Source: Tuwongella immobilis
Lineage (GTDB): Bacteria; Planctomycetota; Planctomycetia; Gemmatales; Gemmataceae
Reading direction: 5' to 3'
Assembly (NCBI RefSeq): GCF_901538355.1
Contig: NZ_LR593887.1
Span: 3,758,920 to 3,822,919 of the forward strand
DNA: 64,000 nucleotides
The position numbers and the translations under genes were made by a program. Under the pieces are notes generated by a model. It was not told the origin of the DNA. It saw nothing but the letters and a program-made list of their open reading frames with translations, and did no database searches. This document shows, one piece after another, positions 16,508-60,025 of this stretch. Each line of letters opens with the position of its first letter. Positions within the stretch are counted from its first letter, which is position 1.

Positions 16508-16628
16508 GTTCGTTGGGTAGCGGATTTTTTCGAGACCGAGACATTGTTCTTGACAGCCGCGAGAGATCGCATAGGATGTGAAAAGACTGAGACTGAATCT
16601 CAATCTGCCTACGGGAATGGGATCTGCA

Positions 16629-16865
16629 ATGAGTTGCTCACCTTCCGGCTGCTCGGGCTGCCAAGGCCCCTATTTGTGTCACTGCCTCAAAATTCATGAG
16701 TCGACCATCACCGATGCGGTGGTCACACTCGGACTACGCACCGTCCGGGAAATCTGCCAACAAACCGGCGCGGGGGGCGGCTGCATGGCCTGCCATCGCA
16801 AAATCGCCCGGGTGATTGAAGCGTGCTGCGCCACCCAATCACGGACATCGTTAGCCGTCGGCTGA
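16629..16865 (+). CDS. Bfd-like [2Fe-2S] ferredoxin
   Basis: A small protein (78 residues from the ATG at 16629, MSCSPSGCSG; a start at 16617 would add four). The bacterioferritin-associated ferredoxin cluster pattern is clear: C17-x-C19 (LCHCLKIHES), 32 residues, then C52-x2-C55 (GGGCMACHRKI), with the helical segment ITDAVVTLGLRTVREICQQT between. Bfd family proteins donate electrons to ferritin to release stored iron, or act in nitrite reductase and NifU-like proteins. Convergence with a bacterioferritin gene 100 bases downstream makes the iron-release role likely. Unusual: three further cysteines (C3, C8, C11) precede the domain. Confidence 0.8.
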   Translation: MSCSPSGCSGCQGPYLCHCLKIHESTITDAVVTLGLRTVREICQQTGAGGGCMACHRKIARVIEACCATQSRTSLAVG

Positions 16866-16966: not shown

Positions 16967-17452
16967 TCAATGCCCGCCTTCGTCTTCACCGATTTGCGTT
17001 TGCAGATAGTTCTGAATCCCGACCTTTTCGATCAAATCCAACTGCGTTTCCAGCCAATCGACGTGTTCTTCCGAATCGACCAGAATCGGGGCGATCAATT
17101 CGCGGGTTCCGTTATCCTTCAGATCCGAGCAAAGCTTGATGAGTTCGTTGTACTTGGCAACGCCGCTTCGCTCGAGGGCGAGATCATTGCGGAATTGTTC
17201 CGGCACATCCGAACCAACGCGGATGACATCGTAGCGGGCGATTTCGGGAACGCCTTCCAGGAACAGAATGCGATCGATCAGCTTTTCGGCGTGGCGCATT
17301 TCGCCCATCGATTCGGAATAGTGCTTGGCGGCCAGCCGATTCAGGCCCCAATTCTTGCACATCTTCGCTTGACAGAAATATTGATTAATGGCGGTCAACT
17401 CGATGGTCAACGCCCAGTTCAACCCGTCGATAATTTCGTCGTGGCCCTTCAT
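16967..17452 (-). CDS. bfr: Bacterioferritin
   Basis: A 161-residue ferritin-fold subunit (start at 17452, AAGGAG five bases upstream). Compared by eye with E. coli Bfr it keeps ferroxidase ligands E18, E51, H54, E94 and H130 and the heme-ligand methionine M52. Segments such as ELTAINQYF, EMRHAEKLIDRILFLEG and DWLETQLDLIEKVG are diagnostic. One difference stands out: the position of E. coli E127, three residues before H130, is serine (DSEEH). Bacterioferritin oxidises Fe(II) and stores it as a mineral in a 24-mer. The facing Bfd-like gene would supply electrons for release. No iron-responsive operator was recognised upstream. Confidence 0.92.
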   Translation of the reverse strand: MKGHDEIIDGLNWALTIELTAINQYFCQAKMCKNWGLNRLAAKHYSESMGEMRHAEKLIDRILFLEGVPEIARYDVIRVGSDVPEQFRNDLALERSGVAKYNELIKLCSDLKDNGTRELIAPILVDSEEHVDWLETQLDLIEKVGIQNYLQTQIGEDEGGH

Positions 17453-17722
17453 CGCAGCTCCTTGGTTCAAAATCGATTCCTACCGCTCAGCATAGGCCAG
17501 TTCCACTCTTCTGACGACCGAATTTCCAGCGATGCGATCACATCTCAGCAAGATTTAGGGAGTTTGCCAACAAGCATGCGATTGCATCTCAAACGCATTG
17601 CCCGCACGGAGGAAGCGTCGATTTTCGAGAAATTTTTGCTTGATCGGATTCTCACCGTGACCGACACTGAGCCTCACCGATTTCCATTCCCCGGAAGGCT
17701 CCGTGACAAAGGATCGATTCTC

Positions 17723-18579: not shown

Positions 18580-19239
18580 TTAGGTGCGGGCGCGCTTGAG
18601 TTCGTCCAAAATTTGGTTGTAACTCGCCCCTTTTCCCTTCATTTCGCTGACTTTTTCGATGCGAGGCGACAGGCCGATCACAAAGCGATCCACCTCTGCG
18701 CCACATTGCTGACAATCGGTCTGCAGGCAATTGAGGTCTTCCCCGGAGAAGTGGGAAAACACTCCCCCGAGAATCCCGGCCAACAGCGATTCAACCGGCT
18801 CATTGGCGTCTGGCACCATCCCCGCATAGGGCGGATTCTCCACGGTGACAACAATCACGCCATGTTGAATCCACGCATAATCGATGGCGATTTTCCCCCA
18901 GCCGTGATGGCTGAATGCCTCCATCAGGCAGCTTTGGAAGAAAATCATCGGGGATTCCCGAAGCGGTTGGCCGTAAAACTCGGAGAGTTCCTTCTCCAAC
19001 CGTTTGGCGAACATCTTCCCCCAGTTGCGACCGCAACTGTGCAGCACCAGACTCGCCGCCGGGCCGCATTCTTGGACCATCGCCGTGCGCAACCCGGCGA
19101 GAAAATCGGTTGTCAGCGACACGATTCGCGTGCCGGACCGATTCCGCGATACTCCCCGACGTGGCTCGGTTTTGATGAACTGCTTTTCGGAAAAATAGTT
19201 CCCGCGTTGCAGGGCACCATCGACGGGTAAACCAGTCAT
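18580..19239 (-). CDS. V4R-domain protein with C-terminal cysteine motif
   Basis: A soluble 219-residue protein of the 4-vinyl-reductase (V4R) small-molecule-binding fold, related to BchJ and bacterial sensor domains. The second half shows the family ending: a helix (VESLLAGILGGVFSHFSG), then a strand with a cysteine cluster LNCLQTDCQQCGAEVDRFVI like the metal-binding cysteines of V4R. A short tail (VSEMKGKGASYNQILDELKR) follows. The start at 19239 has AAGGAA upstream; a GTG start nine codons earlier is less likely. It is the third gene of an operon, 23 bases after a phycobiliprotein-like gene and paired with a second V4R gene at the front. The ligand is unknown; V4R proteins bind porphyrin-like, hydrocarbon or bilin-type molecules. 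Confidence 0.72.
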   Translation of the reverse strand: MTGLPVDGALQRGNYFSEKQFIKTEPRRGVSRNRSGTRIVSLTTDFLAGLRTAMVQECGPAASLVLHSCGRNWGKMFAKRLEKELSEFYGQPLRESPMIFFQSCLMEAFSHHGWGKIAIDYAWIQHGVIVVTVENPPYAGMVPDANEPVESLLAGILGGVFSHFSGEDLNCLQTDCQQCGAEVDRFVIGLSPRIEKVSEMKGKGASYNQILDELKRART

Positions 19240-19262
19240 GATCTGTTCCTTTCTGGCAACGC

Positions 19263-19757
19263 TCACACTGGTTGCGGTTCGGGGATTCCGCCTAAAATTT
19301 CGATATTGATCGCCAAAAACGGCTCGATCAACGCATATTGATCCGGCGGCAAATTGGCTTTGATCGCATCCCGGACATACGTGTATGAATCGCGATTGAA
19401 TTGCGGAGTGAAATTCAGGCCGCTTAACATGCTGGCCATCCAGCCCAAAATTCGATCGGCCTGGAGATTGCGATCATCACAGATCATCGCCAAGACGGAA
19501 TATCGCAACACGAGGGCGAAATCCCGCAGGGTATGATGCACGCCGTTGTCGGGGCGATTTTGGAAGAATTCGGGGTATTTGCGGCGGACTTGTTCCAGCG
19601 CAGATCGCAATGCGGGTTCTTCAATCTGTTGGATTGCGGCGGCAACCTGCATTCGTTTGGGCAGCGAATCCGTGTAATCCAAGATCGCGCGGCGCTCCGC
19701 TTCGGTCAAGTAGCGTCCGGCACTTTCTTCGAGCATTTTGGAGATGGCGGGATTCAT
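19263..19757 (-). CDS. Phycobiliprotein-like globin-fold protein without the bilin cysteine
   Basis: A 164-residue all-helical protein. By eye it lines up over most of its length with allophycocyanin subunits: RYLTEAERRAILDYT at the helix A position, then TLRDFALVLRYSVLAMICDD, where allophycocyanin has CLRDMDYYLRL, and a final helical pair. The chromophore cysteine (Cys84-type) is replaced by T76, while the following Arg-Asp is kept. A non-photosynthetic planctomycete would not make phycobilisomes, so this is probably a repurposed, perhaps ligand-free or differently loaded member of the phycobilisome globin family. Good ribosome site (AAGGAAATCGCC before ATG). It lies between two V4R genes, 10 and 23 bases away, so the three are one operon. 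Confidence 0.62.
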   Translation of the reverse strand: MNPAISKMLEESAGRYLTEAERRAILDYTDSLPKRMQVAAAIQQIEEPALRSALEQVRRKYPEFFQNRPDNGVHHTLRDFALVLRYSVLAMICDDRNLQADRILGWMASMLSGLNFTPQFNRDSYTYVRDAIKANLPPDQYALIEPFLAINIEILGGIPEPQPV

Positions 19758-19767
19758 GGCGATTTCC

Positions 19768-20544
19768 TTAGACGGTGCTGAGCTTCTTCAAAATATCCTT
19801 CGAGGTCGCGCCTTCATTGCGCCAGAACGCGGCGGCATTGACCCGTTTCGCGGTCGAAATCAAAAACTTGCAATAATCTTCGCCCATGGAATAGCACTGG
19901 ATTTCGATTCCCGCCAATTCGCGTCGGGCTAACACGCTGAACACCGCGGCAAACATCCCCGCATAGAAATAGCAGACCACCTTGCCGACATCCCCGAGCG
20001 ATTGGGCCACCGCGGATTCGTACAGATCGATGAAGATCAATCCCTGCTTATGCTGGCGGAAATCGTATCGCCATGCGCCCCAGCCTTCGATCTGCAAGGG
20101 CCACCACCACGATTCCAGCATCATTCCCATCGACATCTTTTCGAACTGCACCAGGAATTCCGCTTGAACGCGTGGCACGAAGGATGCCATGTCTTCCAGG
20201 CCCCATTGATAGCCTGCTTTGTACATGATTTCGCCGGCAGCTTCGCCGACTTCTTCTTCCAGTCCCGCCAGTAAGCCGGTGATGAAGTCTTCCGACACGC
20301 GGACAACCCGCTGGCCGTAGACATTGCGAACAATACCCGCCTTCGGGTCATGTTCAAAAAACTTCTCATCGTAATAATAGTTGTGTCGTCGCCGAACATG
20401 CGTGGCAGCCGCCGGAATCCGATTCTGCAATGCGGTCTGGTTCGCCTCAGTCCGGAGAAACTTCAACACCGTCTGAAGCGTGCGCTGAACGGTTTCGGGT
20501 GGGGGGTTTTTCTTAGAATCAAGCAATGTCTGTTCAATCGTCAT
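19768..20544 (-). CDS. V4R-domain protein
   Basis: A soluble 258-residue protein. The N-terminal 80 residues are charged, with a tyrosine-rich RRRHNYYYDEKFFEHD stretch. The rest is a V4R fold: SEDFITGLLAGLEEEVGEAA, YKAGYQWGLEDMASF, then the typical closing VCYFYAGMFAAVFSVLARRE plus IEIQCYSMGEDYCKFLI with two cysteines. It shares the overall plan of the third gene of the operon, suggesting an old duplication or a heterodimer. It is followed after 10 bases by the phycobiliprotein-like gene. No signal peptide or membrane helix. In Synechocystis I recall V4R proteins within the slr0144-slr0152 photosystem II assembly operon, the nearest known precedent for such company. Confidence 0.72.
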   Translation of the reverse strand: MTIEQTLLDSKKNPPPETVQRTLQTVLKFLRTEANQTALQNRIPAAATHVRRRHNYYYDEKFFEHDPKAGIVRNVYGQRVVRVSEDFITGLLAGLEEEVGEAAGEIMYKAGYQWGLEDMASFVPRVQAEFLVQFEKMSMGMMLESWWWPLQIEGWGAWRYDFRQHKQGLIFIDLYESAVAQSLGDVGKVVCYFYAGMFAAVFSVLARRELAGIEIQCYSMGEDYCKFLISTAKRVNAAAFWRNEGATSKDILKKLSTV

Positions 20545-20905
20545 CGCAGCAAACCTACCGACACGAGTTCAGATTGGGCGAGGGTAAACGATTTAACCGA
20601 AACATCTCAGTACCGTTCACCGATTGTCAAGCAGTTGGCAGGGAGATGCAAGGATTTCCGGCGAATCACGGGAATCTGTTTGCTCAAGGAGTCCCATCAA
20701 TGTCCGGATATCGACTCCTGCCATAGCTGATAATTACGATTATAGCAAAACTTTATGGTGGGAGGCGAATCTTGCCGACAATTTTTTTTCGCAGGTTTGG
20801 CTTCCGAATCGCCGATGCAATTGGTATGACTCCCAATCCAACCGGAAGTCTCTCCTCGCGGTGATGTATCGTGAGTGTTTCATCACCTGGAATGGATTCC
20901 CGCCC
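20545..20905. other. 361-base divergent intergenic region
   Basis: Divergent gap between the V4R operon and the FHA gene, so it must hold both promoters. It is richer in A/T than its surroundings around 20735-20800. A TATAAT hexamer on the minus strand at 20738-20743 is a possible -10 box, but no matching -35 at the right distance is visible. No gene or RNA was recognised. Confidence 0.4.
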
Positions 20906-21340
20906 ATGAGTATGGCTTCGATTCTTGCCTTGCGTCCGCAGGCGGTGCCGCATGCCCTCCCCGCGGAATCGTTCCCGATTCTCCGCTTGCGATTGCTGCC
21001 CAGCGGTCTGATGCTCGTCTGTGCCCGCTCGCATATGGTGCTGGGCCGACACAGCAGTGCGGATATTCGGATTCCCATGCCGGATATCTCGCGGCGTCAT
21101 TGTCGGTTCGATCTCACGCCGGCGGGCTGGCGGGTGATTGACTTAAGCTCGCTCAACGGTGTGATTCTCAACGATCGCATCGTCAGCGACGCGCTGCTCC
21201 GCCCCAATGATCGACTCCGCATTGGCAACGCAGTCATGGATGTGGAACTGCCCGAATTCCAATGGCCGGAAATGCACTCGGAACATTTCGCAACCGATTC
21301 GGAAATCATCCGCAGCATCGCCGCATCACTGCCCGAATGA
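20906..21340 (+). CDS. FHA-domain protein
   Basis: A short cytoplasmic protein (144 residues from the ATG at 20906, MSMASILALRP) that is essentially one forkhead-associated domain. It has the phosphothreonine-binding signature: GRHSSAD, then DISRRHCRFD (the Ser-x-x-His loop) and LSSLNGVILN (the SxNG loop). FHA domains bind phosphothreonine peptides, so it is a plausible reader for Ser/Thr kinases such as the one at 27628, though nothing links them directly. The frame is open to 20624, but no ribosome site supports an earlier start. The following gene begins 72 bases on. Confidence 0.85.
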   Translation: MSMASILALRPQAVPHALPAESFPILRLRLLPSGLMLVCARSHMVLGRHSSADIRIPMPDISRRHCRFDLTPAGWRVIDLSSLNGVILNDRIVSDALLRPNDRLRIGNAVMDVELPEFQWPEMHSEHFATDSEIIRSIAASLPE

Positions 21341-21411: not shown

Positions 21412-22287
21412 ATGGCGACCGCACAGCGATTAGAACGTGAAGAATACATCGAGCAAGCCTATTTTTTCCGCGCCTTCCGAGAACGGTTGGCGGAAAATCT
21501 ATCGGCGCAAGAAATTCTCACGCGCGTGCATGAAGAAATTCTCACCATCACGCGACTGCCGATGGCCATTCAATTCCTGGCCACCGAGATGAAACACGCG
21601 GGGTTACTCGGCCCGGCATTGGCACGACTAGGCCACTATTTCACGCCGTTTCAGGCGTTTCTCATTAGCCAAGCCGAAGACGAGCGGATGCGCTTCACGC
21701 TGCCAATCGCGTTGAATGTGTTGGAACGCGAAGCCAAATACAAAGCGGAACAGCCAACCCCCGCGGGATTGTTCGTTTACCATCTGGAAACCATCAGCCG
21801 AAATCGACTCGGGTACGATGAAGGAATTCAAGCCATCGGGGGCGATCCGCTCTTTGACGACGATTGGCGGGAATATCTCGACTTAGTCCGACGACAGATC
21901 GGGACCATCGATTTTGCCGACTTGGTCTATTTTCGCTCGGAATTCTTCGTGCAGGAACGGCGACGCATGGACCCCGCCTTCGAGCCACGCGAAGTCCCCC
22001 TTTTTGCCGAAAAAGAAGGGAAAATCGCCAAGGCATCCCGAGGGCGCGATCCGTTATTTCTCTTCAGCGCTTTGCAACGACAACTCGCCTATCCCGAAGT
22101 TCCTCGCCCGGCGACACGCGATGATACTGCGGTGAAATTGAGTCAATTCGAATTAAAAATTCGCGAACTGGAAAATCGCGTGAAATTGCTCGAAGGCGAA
22201 ATGCGAGAGAATGTGGATCTCTCCCAATTCGGGAAGCCGGATGTGTTGAAAGACCCGCCAAACTGGAAACAGTTTGATGATGAATAA
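21412..22287 (+). CDS. Conserved-looking protein of unknown function (291 aa)
   Basis: I do not recognise the family. The protein is soluble, charged and largely helical. Residues 1-110 form a helical bundle (REEYIEQAYFFRAFRERLAE, then FLATEMKHAGLLGPALARLG). Residues 140-200 contain the pattern PLFDDDWREYLDLVRRQIGT. A C-terminal heptad stretch (LSQFELKIRELENRVKLLEG) looks like a short coiled coil, as in proteins that oligomerise. No signal peptide. It follows the FHA gene by 72 bases in the same direction and may share its transcript. Confidence 0.65.
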   Translation: MATAQRLEREEYIEQAYFFRAFRERLAENLSAQEILTRVHEEILTITRLPMAIQFLATEMKHAGLLGPALARLGHYFTPFQAFLISQAEDERMRFTLPIALNVLEREAKYKAEQPTPAGLFVYHLETISRNRLGYDEGIQAIGGDPLFDDDWREYLDLVRRQIGTIDFADLVYFRSEFFVQERRRMDPAFEPREVPLFAEKEGKIAKASRGRDPLFLFSALQRQLAYPEVPRPATRDDTAVKLSQFELKIRELENRVKLLEGEMRENVDLSQFGKPDVLKDPPNWKQFDDE

Positions 22288-55064: not shown

Positions 55065-58000
55065 TTACCCCGGCGAATTCGACCTCGCTTGATTTTGCGT
55101 GCGGTCTTCCGAGGATAATTCGTTACGAGACAATAACGATTGTACAAACTGGATGAGCGCCTGCGGCGAATACGGTTTCTGCAGAAACGGCACCTGGTCT
55201 TGCTCGATTCCGTGTCGCAAAACGGTGTCCTGCGTGTACCCGGAGAGAAAACCGATTCGGAGGTCCGGAAAGCATTCCTGCAAGCGCAACGCCACTTCTC
55301 GGCCGCCCATTTCGGGCATAATCACATCGCAAAGGACGGCCGCGGGGCGTTCGCCGTTCGACCGGCAGAGCGCCAATGCCTCTTTCCCCGAGGCAGCGGT
55401 GACAACTCGGTAGCCATGCCGCTGCAGGATGTTGCTTCCCAGAATTCGTACCGGCTCATCATCTTCGACCAAGAGAATCAGCGCGGTGGATGGCCGCTCC
55501 ACTTTCGAGAGCACCATCGGCAACATCGGCATGTCTGCATCGAGCACCACCGGCCAGTAAATCGAGAATGTCGTCCCCTGCCCAACTTTCGACTCGACGA
55601 GAATCTCACCGTTGGCCTGACGCACAAAGCCGTAGACCATGGCCAGCCCCAAGCCGGTCCCCTTGCCTGGTGCTTTCGTCGTGAAAAAGGGCTCGAAAAT
55701 TCGAGATTGCACTTCCGGCGACATGCCAGAGCCGTTGTCCCGGACTTGGAGTTGGAAATACAATCCGGGCGATAACGCGGTCGGTCGCTGGGGAGAATCG
55801 CTCTCCCATTCGATCATCCCCGTTTCGATTGACAGAACGCCTCCTGCCTGCATTGCATCGCGGGCGTTCACCACCAAATTGAGGATCATCTGCTCGAATT
55901 GGCTGACATCGCCTCGAATGCGTGCAATCGAAGTTCCCAGTGGAGTGCGGAGTTGGATCTGCTCCCCGACCAGACGCCGCAACATGGTCAGCATGTCGGC
56001 GATCACGGAATTGGGATCAAACACCACCACCTTGACCATCTGCTGGCGACTGAAGGCGAGCAACTTTTGGGTCAACGCCGCGCCACGCATCCCGGATTGC
56101 TGGATTTCCCGGGCCAACGCAAACGCGGGATGATTCGGTTCGAGCATATCCAGCAGCAATTCCGCACAGCCATTCACCACCGTCAGCAAATTGTTGAAAT
56201 CGTGCGCGACACCGCCCGCCAATTGCCCAATGGCTTCCAATTTTTGCGACTGGCGGACCTGCGATTCCAAGCGCTGTCGTTGCGATATATCGCGACTACA
56301 GACCAACACCGTCGCCACCCCGGACTGATCCCGATACAGGGTATGCACGCTTTCCACGGAGACATCATCACCATTGGCACGCCGAAACCGGAGTTCCAGC
56401 CGCACCGTCTTCCCGCCAAGTGCCTGTCCAACCGCCGCCAGCAGCGCGGCGTGATCGTCCGAATGAACCCACTCCAGCATCGATCGTCCCAGCAATTCTG
56501 CGGGACGAAACCCCAACAGCCGCTCACAAGATGGACTAATGTAGAGGACTTCACCCGTTTCATCGACCCGATACACCATATCTTCGATGGTATCCGCAAG
56601 GAGTCGATAGCGTTCGTGGGCCTGTTGAAGTGCCAGTTCGGCTTCTTTCCGCTGGGTGGTATCTTGAATCACCCCCGTGAGTCGCACCAACGTGCCATCC
56701 GCATTCGCGTGATACCGCCCACTGCTCACACACCAACGAATGCGACCATCGGGGAGAAGAATGCGATACTCGATCTGTAACCGCCGCCGTTCGATCCGTG
56801 AAGATTCCATTTCCTTGAAGACCCGCGGCTGATCCTCGGGATGGACCCGTGAGAACCAGTGCTCAAACGATAACGACGATGACATTTCCAAGGGATAATC
56901 GAACAACTCGAAATGTGCGCGGGACCAAAATACCGTGTTGGTCACGATATCCCAATCGAACATCCCCATGCGACCCGAGTCGAGCGCGAGTTGAAGCCGT
57001 TCCTCGCTGGCCCGGAGCGCGCGATCGGTATCATGCTGCCGCGTGACATCCTGAACCGTCCCCGCAAGGCGAATCGGCACTCCTGCTTCGGTTTCGATGT
57101 ACCCTAAAATCGAAATCCATCGCTGATTCCCTCGGGCCGTTCGAAAGCGATACTCGCCACGAACCAAGGTGCCTTTGTTCAATGCCTGGGAAAAATCCTG
57201 TTGAATCTTCGCCCGGTCTTCGGCCGAAAACGCCGACAACACTCGCTCAACAGTCAACTCAATATTCGATGGGTATTCGTAGAGTTGATACATCTGCTCG
57301 GTTAATTCCAGTCGTTGGAATCGCAGATCGTAACTCCACCCCCCCACTTGGGCCAATCGCCCCGTTGCGTTGAGCAATTCGCGACTGCGGATCAGTTCCG
57401 TTTCCTGTTGTTTTCTCCCACGGATATCGCGGTCAATGCCCAGAATCGCCGTCCGACCTTCCCAACGAATCAACCGGGCGCGAATTTCCATCGGCACAAT
57501 GGAACCATTCTTGGCACGGTGTTCCGCCTCGAATTGGATCAGGTTGCCTTGCAGCATCTGCTCCAGTCGGTCGTTGGCCTGATGGTAGGTTCCAGGCGTG
57601 TCCAGTTTCGACAGTGGCGTCCCAATCAACTCATCGGGATGGTAGCCATGCGTTTGTTGCACGGCCGAGTTCACATACAGAATGCGAAATGGCACATCGG
57701 TATCGAACGGATCGAGAATGAAAATCGGGTCGGGCATCGTCTCGGCCAACATGCGGAACTTGGCTTCACTCTCGCAAAGTGCCGTTTGAGCTTGTTTTTG
57801 CTGCGTGACATTTCGGAACACCACCACCCAATAATCGGGCGATCCAGACGAATTCCCCACCGGCGTCACTTGCACATCGGCCCAGAAGCAATCGCCGGTT
57901 TTTCGCAACATCCGCAGTTCGAGACGAGCCGGCCCCGCTTCGGAAATGGCCCGCTGCCAGGCCGAACGGTGCGGTGAATCGAACGCCTCGCTGGCCATGA

Positions 58001-59792
58001 AATCGAGCGGTTTTCCTTCGACTTCGGAGCGTTCGTAACCCGTTTCTTGCAGAAATGCCGAGTTGACCGATTCCACGATCGGCAGATGCGGCGATCCCAG
58101 CACGGGTCGCAACACCAAAACCATCTCACGCACGCTTTCAACAATCGACTGCAACAATCGCAACTGCCCCGGCCAACACTGTCCGATTGACGCAGCGGGA
58201 ACCGAACCAGCGGATCGCACGGCAACCGGGTTGGCGTTGATGGAGCCCAGTCGGGAGCGCAATTCCAACCATTTGCCGCGCACCGAATCGCGAAGCACCC
58301 GGAGTTCGCGATTCGTCCAACTTCGCGAGCGATGGCGACGAGTTTCGACCCAGCATTCCGGAACTCGTCCCGGCTCCGCGGGTTGCCGTTGCGAATGCTG
58401 GATTCGGTCAGGGGGAGGGTCACCCGCCCAGGTGATCGTGATTGGTTCCTCACCACGAAACCACATCAGCCAACCGGGCTCATGATTCGCGATCGACACC
58501 GCGAGCAATCCAGACGCGATCGATTCAATCCCCTGCCACTGGGAATCGAGCGATGATAAACAATCGCTCACATGAACCGGCTCGCCTCGCAACGAAAGCC
58601 AATTTCCCAACGCGACGATGGTTTCAATGCCCGGAGTGCGTCCCCAGGTGCAATATCCACTCGAATCGATCGCCGCAAATCCTGTGGCAGAAACCAAATT
58701 CAAGAGCGAATCGCCAATCGTTCCCACCACATCCGAACAGGAACGTGGAGGATCATTCGGCCACAACAGTGGGGCAAACAACTGATCGGTAATCGACAGA
58801 TGCGATTGATATTCCTGGGCATCAAAGATCTCGGCTTGAAGCGCAACCAATTCGGCAAATGATGCGATCTTCTGCCGGGCGGTCCAATCGGGAAGCCATG
58901 GCCGATCATGGTGCGCTTCCACCAGCCCCCAGAGCTGCCCATCTCGGATGATCGACGCCACAAGCGTCGCCTGAACGCCCAACTTTCGGAAATAGCGAAC
59001 ATAGAATGGCGAGGGCGATCGACTCACCACCAGACTGAGATCCAAGGTCACGCCTGCAACGGCATCGGTTGGTGTCTGCAAGGGAATCGCGGGTGCATCA
59101 ATATCTTCAATGATTCGCTCGCGAGCGCGGATCATCAGCGTTACAGCCTGTTCGGGAATCTCGGCACCGGAAAAATGATATCCAAACCACGATTCGAGAG
59201 GAATCGCGACCGACTCAGCGATCACCGATCGATTCCGATTGAGATCAAACCGAGAGATCAGCAACCGACTGCAACCGACCTGTTCCCGCAGTCGATTGAC
59301 CACCGCATCGCAATAAGACTCAATCGATCGACTGGTCATCCCCACTTTCCCAGCGGTTCGCAACCAATCGAGCATTTCCCCAGCCGTTTGAGTCGACGGT
59401 TTCCCATCCCCGGAATGCCTCTCGCGATTGGCTTCCAGGACGTACAACTCTCCAACGCGATGAATTCGAGCGGAGACGAATTCGCCATTGGGCAGTTGAA
59501 GTTGGCCCAATGGCACGATTTCGGTGGATGTCATCGGCGGGAGTTGGTGCCGAATTCGCTCGCAAAATTCGGATGGGAGACAATCGGAAATCGTCAGCCG
59601 TCGATCAATCGGGAAAGAAATTTGCAGCCATTCCGCCGCGTTCTCGCTCCAATACCGCAATTCTTCCGCGCGATTCCAGGCAAGAAGCATTCCAAATGGT
59701 TGGATACAACCGGGCAAATGCAACAATTCGCGTGCGGTTTCCCCTGCGGAAAAGTGCTGGGGATTGTGCGAACCGCCGGATTCCGAATTCAT
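55065..59792 (-). CDS. Phytochrome-like hybrid histidine kinase with degenerate chromophore pocket
   Basis: A soluble 1575-residue kinase. Domain order: phytochrome PAS_2 (about 20-125), GAF (about 155-325), PHY (about 330-500), five PAS domains (about 560-1180), HisKA with H in [11 protein letters not shown], HATPase ([27 protein letters not shown]) and a C-terminal receiver ([17 protein letters not shown]). The photosensory part aligns with bacteriophytochromes ([40 protein letters not shown]). The Cys before the PAS signature is Thr, the DIP Asp is Glu and the chromophore His260 is Tyr; one pair of histidines (AHH) remains. Start at 59792 (GGGAG six bases upstream); 59828 adds 12 residues. 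Kinase and receiver look active. Confidence 0.9.
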
Positions 59793-60025
59793 CGAAGGCT
59801 CCCACTCTTCGCAATCCGCGCGGATCATTCATCCGGAGGGGAATCGGTCCCAGGTTCCCACTCCGCGGAACCATCCCGCACGTATCGTAACTCGGATTGC
59901 AATTGAATCAATCAAAATCGATCTCAAGATTGAATGTTTGTTTCGCCGGAATTTCCCTGGTATTCTCGACGCAACTGTTGGCTTGTCTCCAACTGGAAAC
60001 GACCGTCCCCACACGGAACATCAGT

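What the first reader, a model, noticed from the sequence alone, without database searches (positions are those of the whole stretch)
18580..20544. Operon of two V4R-domain proteins flanking a phycobiliprotein-like protein
A non-photosynthetic planctomycete carries a V4R / phycobilisome-globin-like / V4R operon with 10 and 23 base gaps. V4R folds bind tetrapyrrole-like or hydrophobic ligands and phycobiliproteins bind bilins, so the trio looks like a small tetrapyrrole- or ligand-handling complex. The only partial precedent I recall is V4R proteins in the Synechocystis slr0144-slr0152 operon for photosystem II assembly. Function outside photosynthesis is undescribed as far as I know.
Basis: partly seen in the sequence, partly recalled or inferred. 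Interest (0 to 1): 0.65.

Follow-up and report, generated by a model that had tools for sequence, protein, structure and literature searches.

The report
Bilin-globin and V4R gene trio
This non-photosynthetic planctomycete carries a relative of the light-harvesting phycobiliproteins between two V4R proteins, a gene set already described in 2023 as the bilin-associated source of cyanobacterial phycobiliproteins; here it is split from its partner genes, and the wider family turns out to travel with a protein kinase, which hints at signalling.

Summary
On the minus strand lie V4R (20544-19768), a phycobilisome-type globin (19757-19263) and V4R (start most likely 19239, to 18580), with gaps of 10 and 23 bases; all three pass Pfam's curated cut-offs. 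The novelty claim does not hold. This is the V4R-A / BBAG / V4R-B core of the pre-PcyA gene cluster of Rockwell, Martin and Lagarias (PNAS 2023, PMC10151467), reported in heterotrophs including Planctomycetes, with bilin-binding globins. Synechocystis slr0144-slr0149 is the same cluster, globin included. In this genome the cluster is broken up: kinase-heme oxygenase-ferredoxin at 4.80 Mb, bilin reductase at 79 kb, a second cluster at 1.09 Mb. Not seen in that paper's main text: V4R-A carries three invariant cysteines with the spacing of MsvR's redox cysteines; a Ser/Thr kinase gene directly follows V4R-B in many planctomycete, myxobacterial and cyanobacterial loci; and in Gemmataceae the cluster ferredoxin also occurs fused to a kinase. 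The window globin lacks the covalent bilin cysteine (TLRD for CXRD) but keeps R and D. Best reading: a bilin-binding, redox-linked module that regulates a kinase. Membership is near certain; the signalling role is inferred.

The parts
19768..20544 (-). V4R-A protein, 258 aa, first gene of the trio
   Evidence: PF02830 E=5.9e-15; groups with L046 and L057, whose loci carry heme oxygenase, bilin reductase and ferredoxin; invariant Cys191, Cys217, Cys225
19263..19757 (-). Phycobiliprotein-like globin (BBAG), 164 aa; TLRD at the place of the bilin-binding CXRD motif
   Evidence: PF00502 E=1.8e-17; AlphaFold pLDDT 93 and PDB phycobiliprotein matches; motif alignment
18580..19239 (-). V4R-B protein, 219 aa from ATG (an upstream GTG at 19266 would give 228 aa)
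   Evidence: PF02830 E=5.5e-10; ribosome-binding-like AGAAAGGA before the ATG

Best explanation
The trio is the displaced right half of an ancestral cluster of the form kinase - bilin reductase - heme oxygenase - ferredoxin - V4R-A - globin - V4R-B - kinase. Proposed working: heme oxygenase and bilin reductase, encoded elsewhere in the genome, make a bilin; the globin holds it without a covalent bond; V4R-A, with an MsvR-like cysteine triad, and V4R-B form a complex with the globin and register ligand or redox state; the readout is a Ser/Thr kinase and the [2Fe-2S] ferredoxin it acts with. Shown here by sequence: homology, gene order, co-occurrence, loss of the cysteine, the cysteine spacing, the kinase linkage and the ferredoxin-kinase fusion. 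Shown in the literature for relatives: bilin binding by BBAGs, and loss of ferredoxin 5 phosphorylation in the Synechocystis spkG mutant. Inferred: complex formation, non-covalent binding by this protein, and regulation of the kinase.
For: Homology and order. Window V4R-A groups with L046 and L057 (SH-aLRT 80), both linked to heme oxygenase, bilin reductase, ferredoxin and a ferredoxin-kinase fusion. Own genome: kinase-HO-ferredoxin row at 4.80 Mb, bilin reductase at 79 kb; the 907-aa kinase also resembles the upstream kinases of L048, L050 and L052 in an N-terminal stretch. Co-occurrence in 95 family genomes: globin with V4R 19/19, with HO 17/19 (p=6e-11), bilin reductase only in globin genomes, 7/7 (p=5e-6). 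Kinase as the next same-strand gene after V4R-B: 17 of 24 non-Pseudanabaena cyanobacterial loci, 8 of 11 myxobacterial and other loci, 7 of 12 type I planctomycete loci, against 32-45 kinases per genome in six of seven cyanobacteria checked. Ferredoxin-kinase fusion confirmed by Pfam in L057 and seen by similarity in seven further Gemmataceae loci. Cysteines 191/217/225 in all 84 V4R-A rows apart from one gap, spaced 26 and 8 as are MsvR C206/C232/C240. SpkG and ferredoxin 5: PMC11863333; Fdx5 = slr0148: PMC7363133.
Against: No kinase adjoins the window trio itself. The next-gene kinase is missing from type II Gemmataceae loci, Pirellulales and Pseudanabaena-type loci, though type II loci often carry the fused kinase nearby. 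Kinases are abundant in Gemmataceae (94 or more in this genome), so single neighbours mean little there. SpkG's kinase activity has not been shown directly. The globin lacks the covalent cysteine, so it might bind another ligand or none. V4R cysteines could be structural. The V4R-A model was poor (pLDDT 52), so its pocket was not examined.
Confidence: 0.45

Rival explanations
1. A bilin carrier or store: the globin and V4R proteins take biliverdin from heme oxygenase and pass it to the bilin reductase or to the phytochromes, with no signalling of their own.
For: Heme oxygenase in 17 of 19 globin genomes; bilin reductase adjacent in many type I and Pirellulales clusters; two phytochrome genes in this genome.
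Against: Does not explain the kinase next to V4R-B in three phyla or the ferredoxin-kinase fusion. Twelve of the 19 globin genomes have no detected bilin reductase.
Confidence: 0.25
2. An assembly or repair factor for a membrane redox complex, as proposed for slr0144-slr0152 and photosystem II, in which the globin is a scaffold and ligand binding is secondary.
For: Published involvement of the Synechocystis operon in photosystem II stabilisation (PMC13326532); non-catalytic look of all three proteins; covalent cysteine lost.
Against: No photosystem in this organism is expected; Rockwell et al. note that the photosystem effects may come from slr0150-slr0152 rather than the core genes.
Confidence: 0.15
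3. The trio has lost its bilin role and binds another hydrophobic or tetrapyrrole ligand such as heme, so the bilin genes now serve only the second cluster and the phytochromes.
For: TLRD instead of CXRD; bilin genes are no longer adjacent to the trio; the genome has a second, type II cluster.
Against: R and D of the motif are kept, and the same cysteine is absent from most family members that still sit beside heme oxygenase and bilin reductase.
Confidence: 0.15

Closest known systems
Pre-PcyA-associated cluster with BBAG-1 (Rockwell et al. 2023, PMC10151467)
   Same: Two V4R proteins with a phycobiliprotein-like globin, and heme oxygenase, bilin reductase and Fe-S protein in the genome; pre-1 reported in Planctomycetes among others.
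   Different: Partner genes are dispersed to other places in this chromosome; the globin has TLRD rather than the CXRD of the BBAG-1/-3 proteins tested in that work.
Synechocystis slr0144-slr0152 operon (V4R Slr0144 and Slr0147, ferredoxin 5 Slr0148, globin Slr0149, kinase SpkG Slr0152)
   Same: Homologous V4R pair, globin and ferredoxin, and a kinase in the operon.
   Different: Phototroph; no bilin genes in the operon; studied in connection with photosystem II.
Light-harvesting phycobiliproteins (allophycocyanin, phycocyanin)
   Same: Globin fold and PF00502; R and D of the CXRD motif.
   Different: No covalent bilin cysteine at that position, about 14-20% identity to the best PDB matches, V4R partners, no phycobilisome expected.
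MsvR redox regulators of methanogens
   Same: V4R domain with three cysteines at the same spacing (26 and 8).
   Different: V4R-A has no DNA-binding match and scores 39.9 bits against a 220-bit MsvR cut-off.

Membership tests
BBAG / pre-PcyA-associated cluster | Phycobiliprotein-related globin | tested here: met
   PF00502 E=1.8e-17; PDB fold matches
BBAG / pre-PcyA-associated cluster | Two V4R proteins, one of each clade, with the globin | tested here: met
   PF02830 in both; V4R-A and V4R-B relatives recur with the globin. The published clade A/B tree was not repeated
BBAG / pre-PcyA-associated cluster | Heme oxygenase, Fe-S protein and bilin reductase typically in the same cluster | tested here: not met
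   All three are in the genome but at other places. The paper reports pre-1 cases with distant genes, so this is not a strict requirement, and the nearest relatives L046 and L057 have them adjacent; it does not exclude membership
BBAG / pre-PcyA-associated cluster | Bilin binding by the globin | not testable with these tools
   Shown in PMC10151467 for other members only
Covalent phycobiliproteins | Cysteine of the CXRD motif | tested here: not met
   Threonine in TLRD; aligned by profile to allophycocyanin beta-18 CLRD
Covalent phycobiliproteins | R and D of the motif | tested here: met
   R78 and D79, invariant in alignment A2
MsvR-type redox V4R proteins | Three V4R cysteines with MsvR spacing | tested here: met
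   C191/C217/C225 against C206/C232/C240
MsvR-type redox V4R proteins | Full-length MsvR match and DNA-binding domain | tested here: not met
   39.9 bits against a cut-off of 220; only V4R found by Pfam

The most novel reading that the evidence does not exclude
The V4R-globin-V4R set is an ancient bilin- and redox-responsive regulator of a Ser/Thr kinase and ferredoxin, found from heterotrophic planctomycetes and myxobacteria to cyanobacteria, and the photosystem role of slr0144-slr0152 is a later use of it. The window version works with a non-covalently held bilin.
Probability: 0.3. Interest if true: 0.72.

Novelty: new member of a known kind. Interest (0 to 1): 0.42.

Why it matters
The function of these globins is stated to be unknown (PMC10151467), although they belong to the group from which phycobiliproteins are thought to have arisen. 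The kinase linkage, the ferredoxin-kinase fusion and the MsvR-like cysteine triad give a concrete, testable lead towards that function, and tie it to a biochemical observation in Synechocystis (SpkG-dependent phosphorylation of ferredoxin 5). The cysteine-free globins also bear on how covalent bilin binding evolved.

Tried and rejected
Rejected: that the Phycobilisome match is spurious (fold and profile agree); that the trio was taken recently from cyanobacteria (it groups with Gemmataceae relatives, and cyanobacterial V4R-A forms a separate supported group); that the FHA-domain neighbour at 20624-21340 belongs to the set (only one weakly similar protein near another cluster); that the next gene 21412-22287 belongs to it (no relative near other clusters). 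Supplements of PMC10151467 could not be read, so whether the kinase link or the cysteine losses are tabulated there is unknown. Binomial values treat related loci as independent and rest on assumed gene and kinase counts, so they overstate significance and are not relied on.

Full report
WHAT IS THERE. The window carries three minus-strand genes: V4R-A 20544-19768, globin 19757-19263 and V4R-B 19239-18580. Their gaps are 10 and 23 bases when the V4R-B start is the ATG at 19239, which has an AGAAAGGA stretch in front of it. Pfam gives V4R (5.9e-15 and 5.5e-10) and Phycobilisome (1.8e-17), all above the curated cut-offs. A profile of the globin with 11 relatives finds allophycocyanins in the PDB (best E 9.7e-12). 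The globin model has mean pLDDT 93, and its best Foldseek matches are allophycocyanin and phycocyanin chains, TM 0.70-0.82 among the top 50.

WHAT IS KNOWN. The arrangement was described in 2023 by Rockwell, Martin and Lagarias (PMC10151467). They report clusters of an Fe-S protein, two V4R proteins of two clades, a bilin biosynthesis-associated globin (BBAG) and often heme oxygenase, linked to pre-PcyA bilin reductases in heterotrophs; pre-1 is listed from Planctomycetes among others. They show that BBAGs bind bilins, name slr0144-slr0149 as the related cyanobacterial cluster with slr0149 as its globin, and state that the function is unknown. They say some, not all, BBAGs have the CXRD motif, and that pre-1 genes can lie apart. 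The finding is therefore a member of a published kind.

THE GENOME. G000 is one 6.69 Mb contig. Its family is Gemmataceae by inference: contigs of family members match records so named (for example G395:C23 and CALDUY010000023, both 180,860 bases). It holds four V4R stretches and three PF00502 stretches. Besides the window trio there is a second cluster at 1.09 Mb with ferredoxin, V4R-A, V4R-B and two globins, followed by a PAS histidine kinase whose ORF overlaps that of the last globin. One bilin reductase lies at 79 kb. One heme oxygenase lies at 4.80 Mb, in a row kinase (907 aa) - heme oxygenase - ferredoxin with the genes a few bases apart or overlapping. Two phytochrome genes are present.

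DISTRIBUTION. PF00502 occurs in 5 of 392 sampled Planctomycetota genomes and 19 of 95 genomes of the family. Those 19 are exactly the genomes with V4R over its cut-off. Seventeen of 19 have heme oxygenase against 8 of 76 others, and all seven bilin reductase genomes are among the 19; Fisher p 2e-20, 6e-11 and 5e-6. These counts are not corrected for relatedness. Two layouts exist in Gemmataceae. Type I has the order V4R-A / globin / V4R-B, usually with heme oxygenase and ferredoxin and often bilin reductase. Type II has ferredoxin / V4R-A / V4R-B / two globins and usually heme oxygenase, without bilin reductase. The window trio has type I order, and its V4R-A groups with L046 and L057 (SH-aLRT 80, quick tree); type II V4R-A is a separate supported group (99). 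Hence the reading that the window trio is a displaced half of a type I cluster. A scan of named genomes gave 269 relatives, of which 80 were kept, from Planctomycetota, Myxococcota, Sericytochromatia, Bradymonadaceae and cyanobacteria, with V4R-A / globin / V4R-B in the same order in most.

THE BILIN SITE. The window globin reads T-L-R-D where phycobiliproteins read C-X-R-D. In the Gemmataceae set only L047 keeps the cysteine (CARD). Across all 158 aligned rows, duplicates included, nine have cysteine there. R and D are invariant in the 12-row type I alignment. Covalent attachment at this site is thus excluded by sequence; non-covalent binding is an inference.

THE REDOX AND KINASE LINK. V4R-A has cysteines 191, 217 and 225 in every one of 84 rows, apart from one gap in a truncated sequence. 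Their spacing, 26 and 8, is that of C206, C232 and C240 of MsvR, whose mutation alters redox-dependent DNA binding (PMC3729527). V4R-A is not an MsvR (39.9 bits against 220). A Ser/Thr kinase is the next same-strand gene after V4R-B in 17 of 24 non-Pseudanabaena cyanobacterial loci, 8 of 11 myxobacterial and other loci, and 7 of 12 type I planctomycete loci, but in none of 12 type II, 8 Pirellulales and 14 Pseudanabaena-type loci. Six of seven cyanobacterial genomes checked have 32-45 kinases and one has about 95, so one in the next position is rarely expected by chance. In Gemmataceae a ferredoxin domain of the cluster type is fused to a kinase (Pfam on L057; similarity in L046, L049, L062, L063, L064, L066 and L067). 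In Synechocystis the last gene of the operon is SpkG, and in its mutant ferredoxin 5, the cluster's own ferredoxin, is no longer phosphorylated; direct kinase activity of SpkG is unproven (PMC11863333, PMC7363133). Rockwell et al. set the downstream genes aside for want of evidence that they are conserved. The present data supply such evidence for a kinase, though not that the kinases are orthologous.

VERDICT. Observation confirmed; family identity near certain and already published; mechanism open. The most likely working is a bilin- and redox-responsive module acting on a kinase and ferredoxin, at about 0.45, against a bilin carrier (0.25), an assembly factor (0.15) and a changed ligand (0.15).

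Noticed in passing
window 55065-59828 (-): Phytochrome-type hybrid histidine kinase (PAS_2, GAF, PHY, PAS repeats, HATPase, receiver). Its N-terminus reads [16 protein letters not shown], whereas the genome's other phytochrome at 6.59 Mb (L161) reads CAREAIHLPGAIQPHG, so the usual biliverdin cysteine seems lost here as in the globin.
   Followed up: partly
window 20624-21340 (+): FHA-domain protein divergently placed next to the trio; FHA domains read phosphothreonine, but it is not a recurrent neighbour.
   Followed up: partly
L089 11025-13406 and equivalents in L088, L090, L093, L095, L096, L097, L100: Pirellulales clusters have a downstream protein of about 800 aa with an N-terminal phycobilisome-type globin and some 630 residues without a Pfam match, conserved in all eight loci.
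   Followed up: partly
L010 6368-8728 (-): Receiver-PAS-histidine kinase-receiver gene directly after the second globin cluster of this genome, its ORF overlapping that of the last globin.
   Followed up: partly
L114 11859-14780; L139 8285-9679: Globin domains in the C-terminal part of longer ORFs (973 and 464 aa) in non-photosynthetic bacteria; the extra parts have no clear Pfam match.
   Followed up: no
window 16578-16865 (+) and 16967-17470 (-): BFD-like [2Fe-2S] protein and a ferritin-family protein close to the trio; possible iron link, probably coincidental.
   Followed up: no
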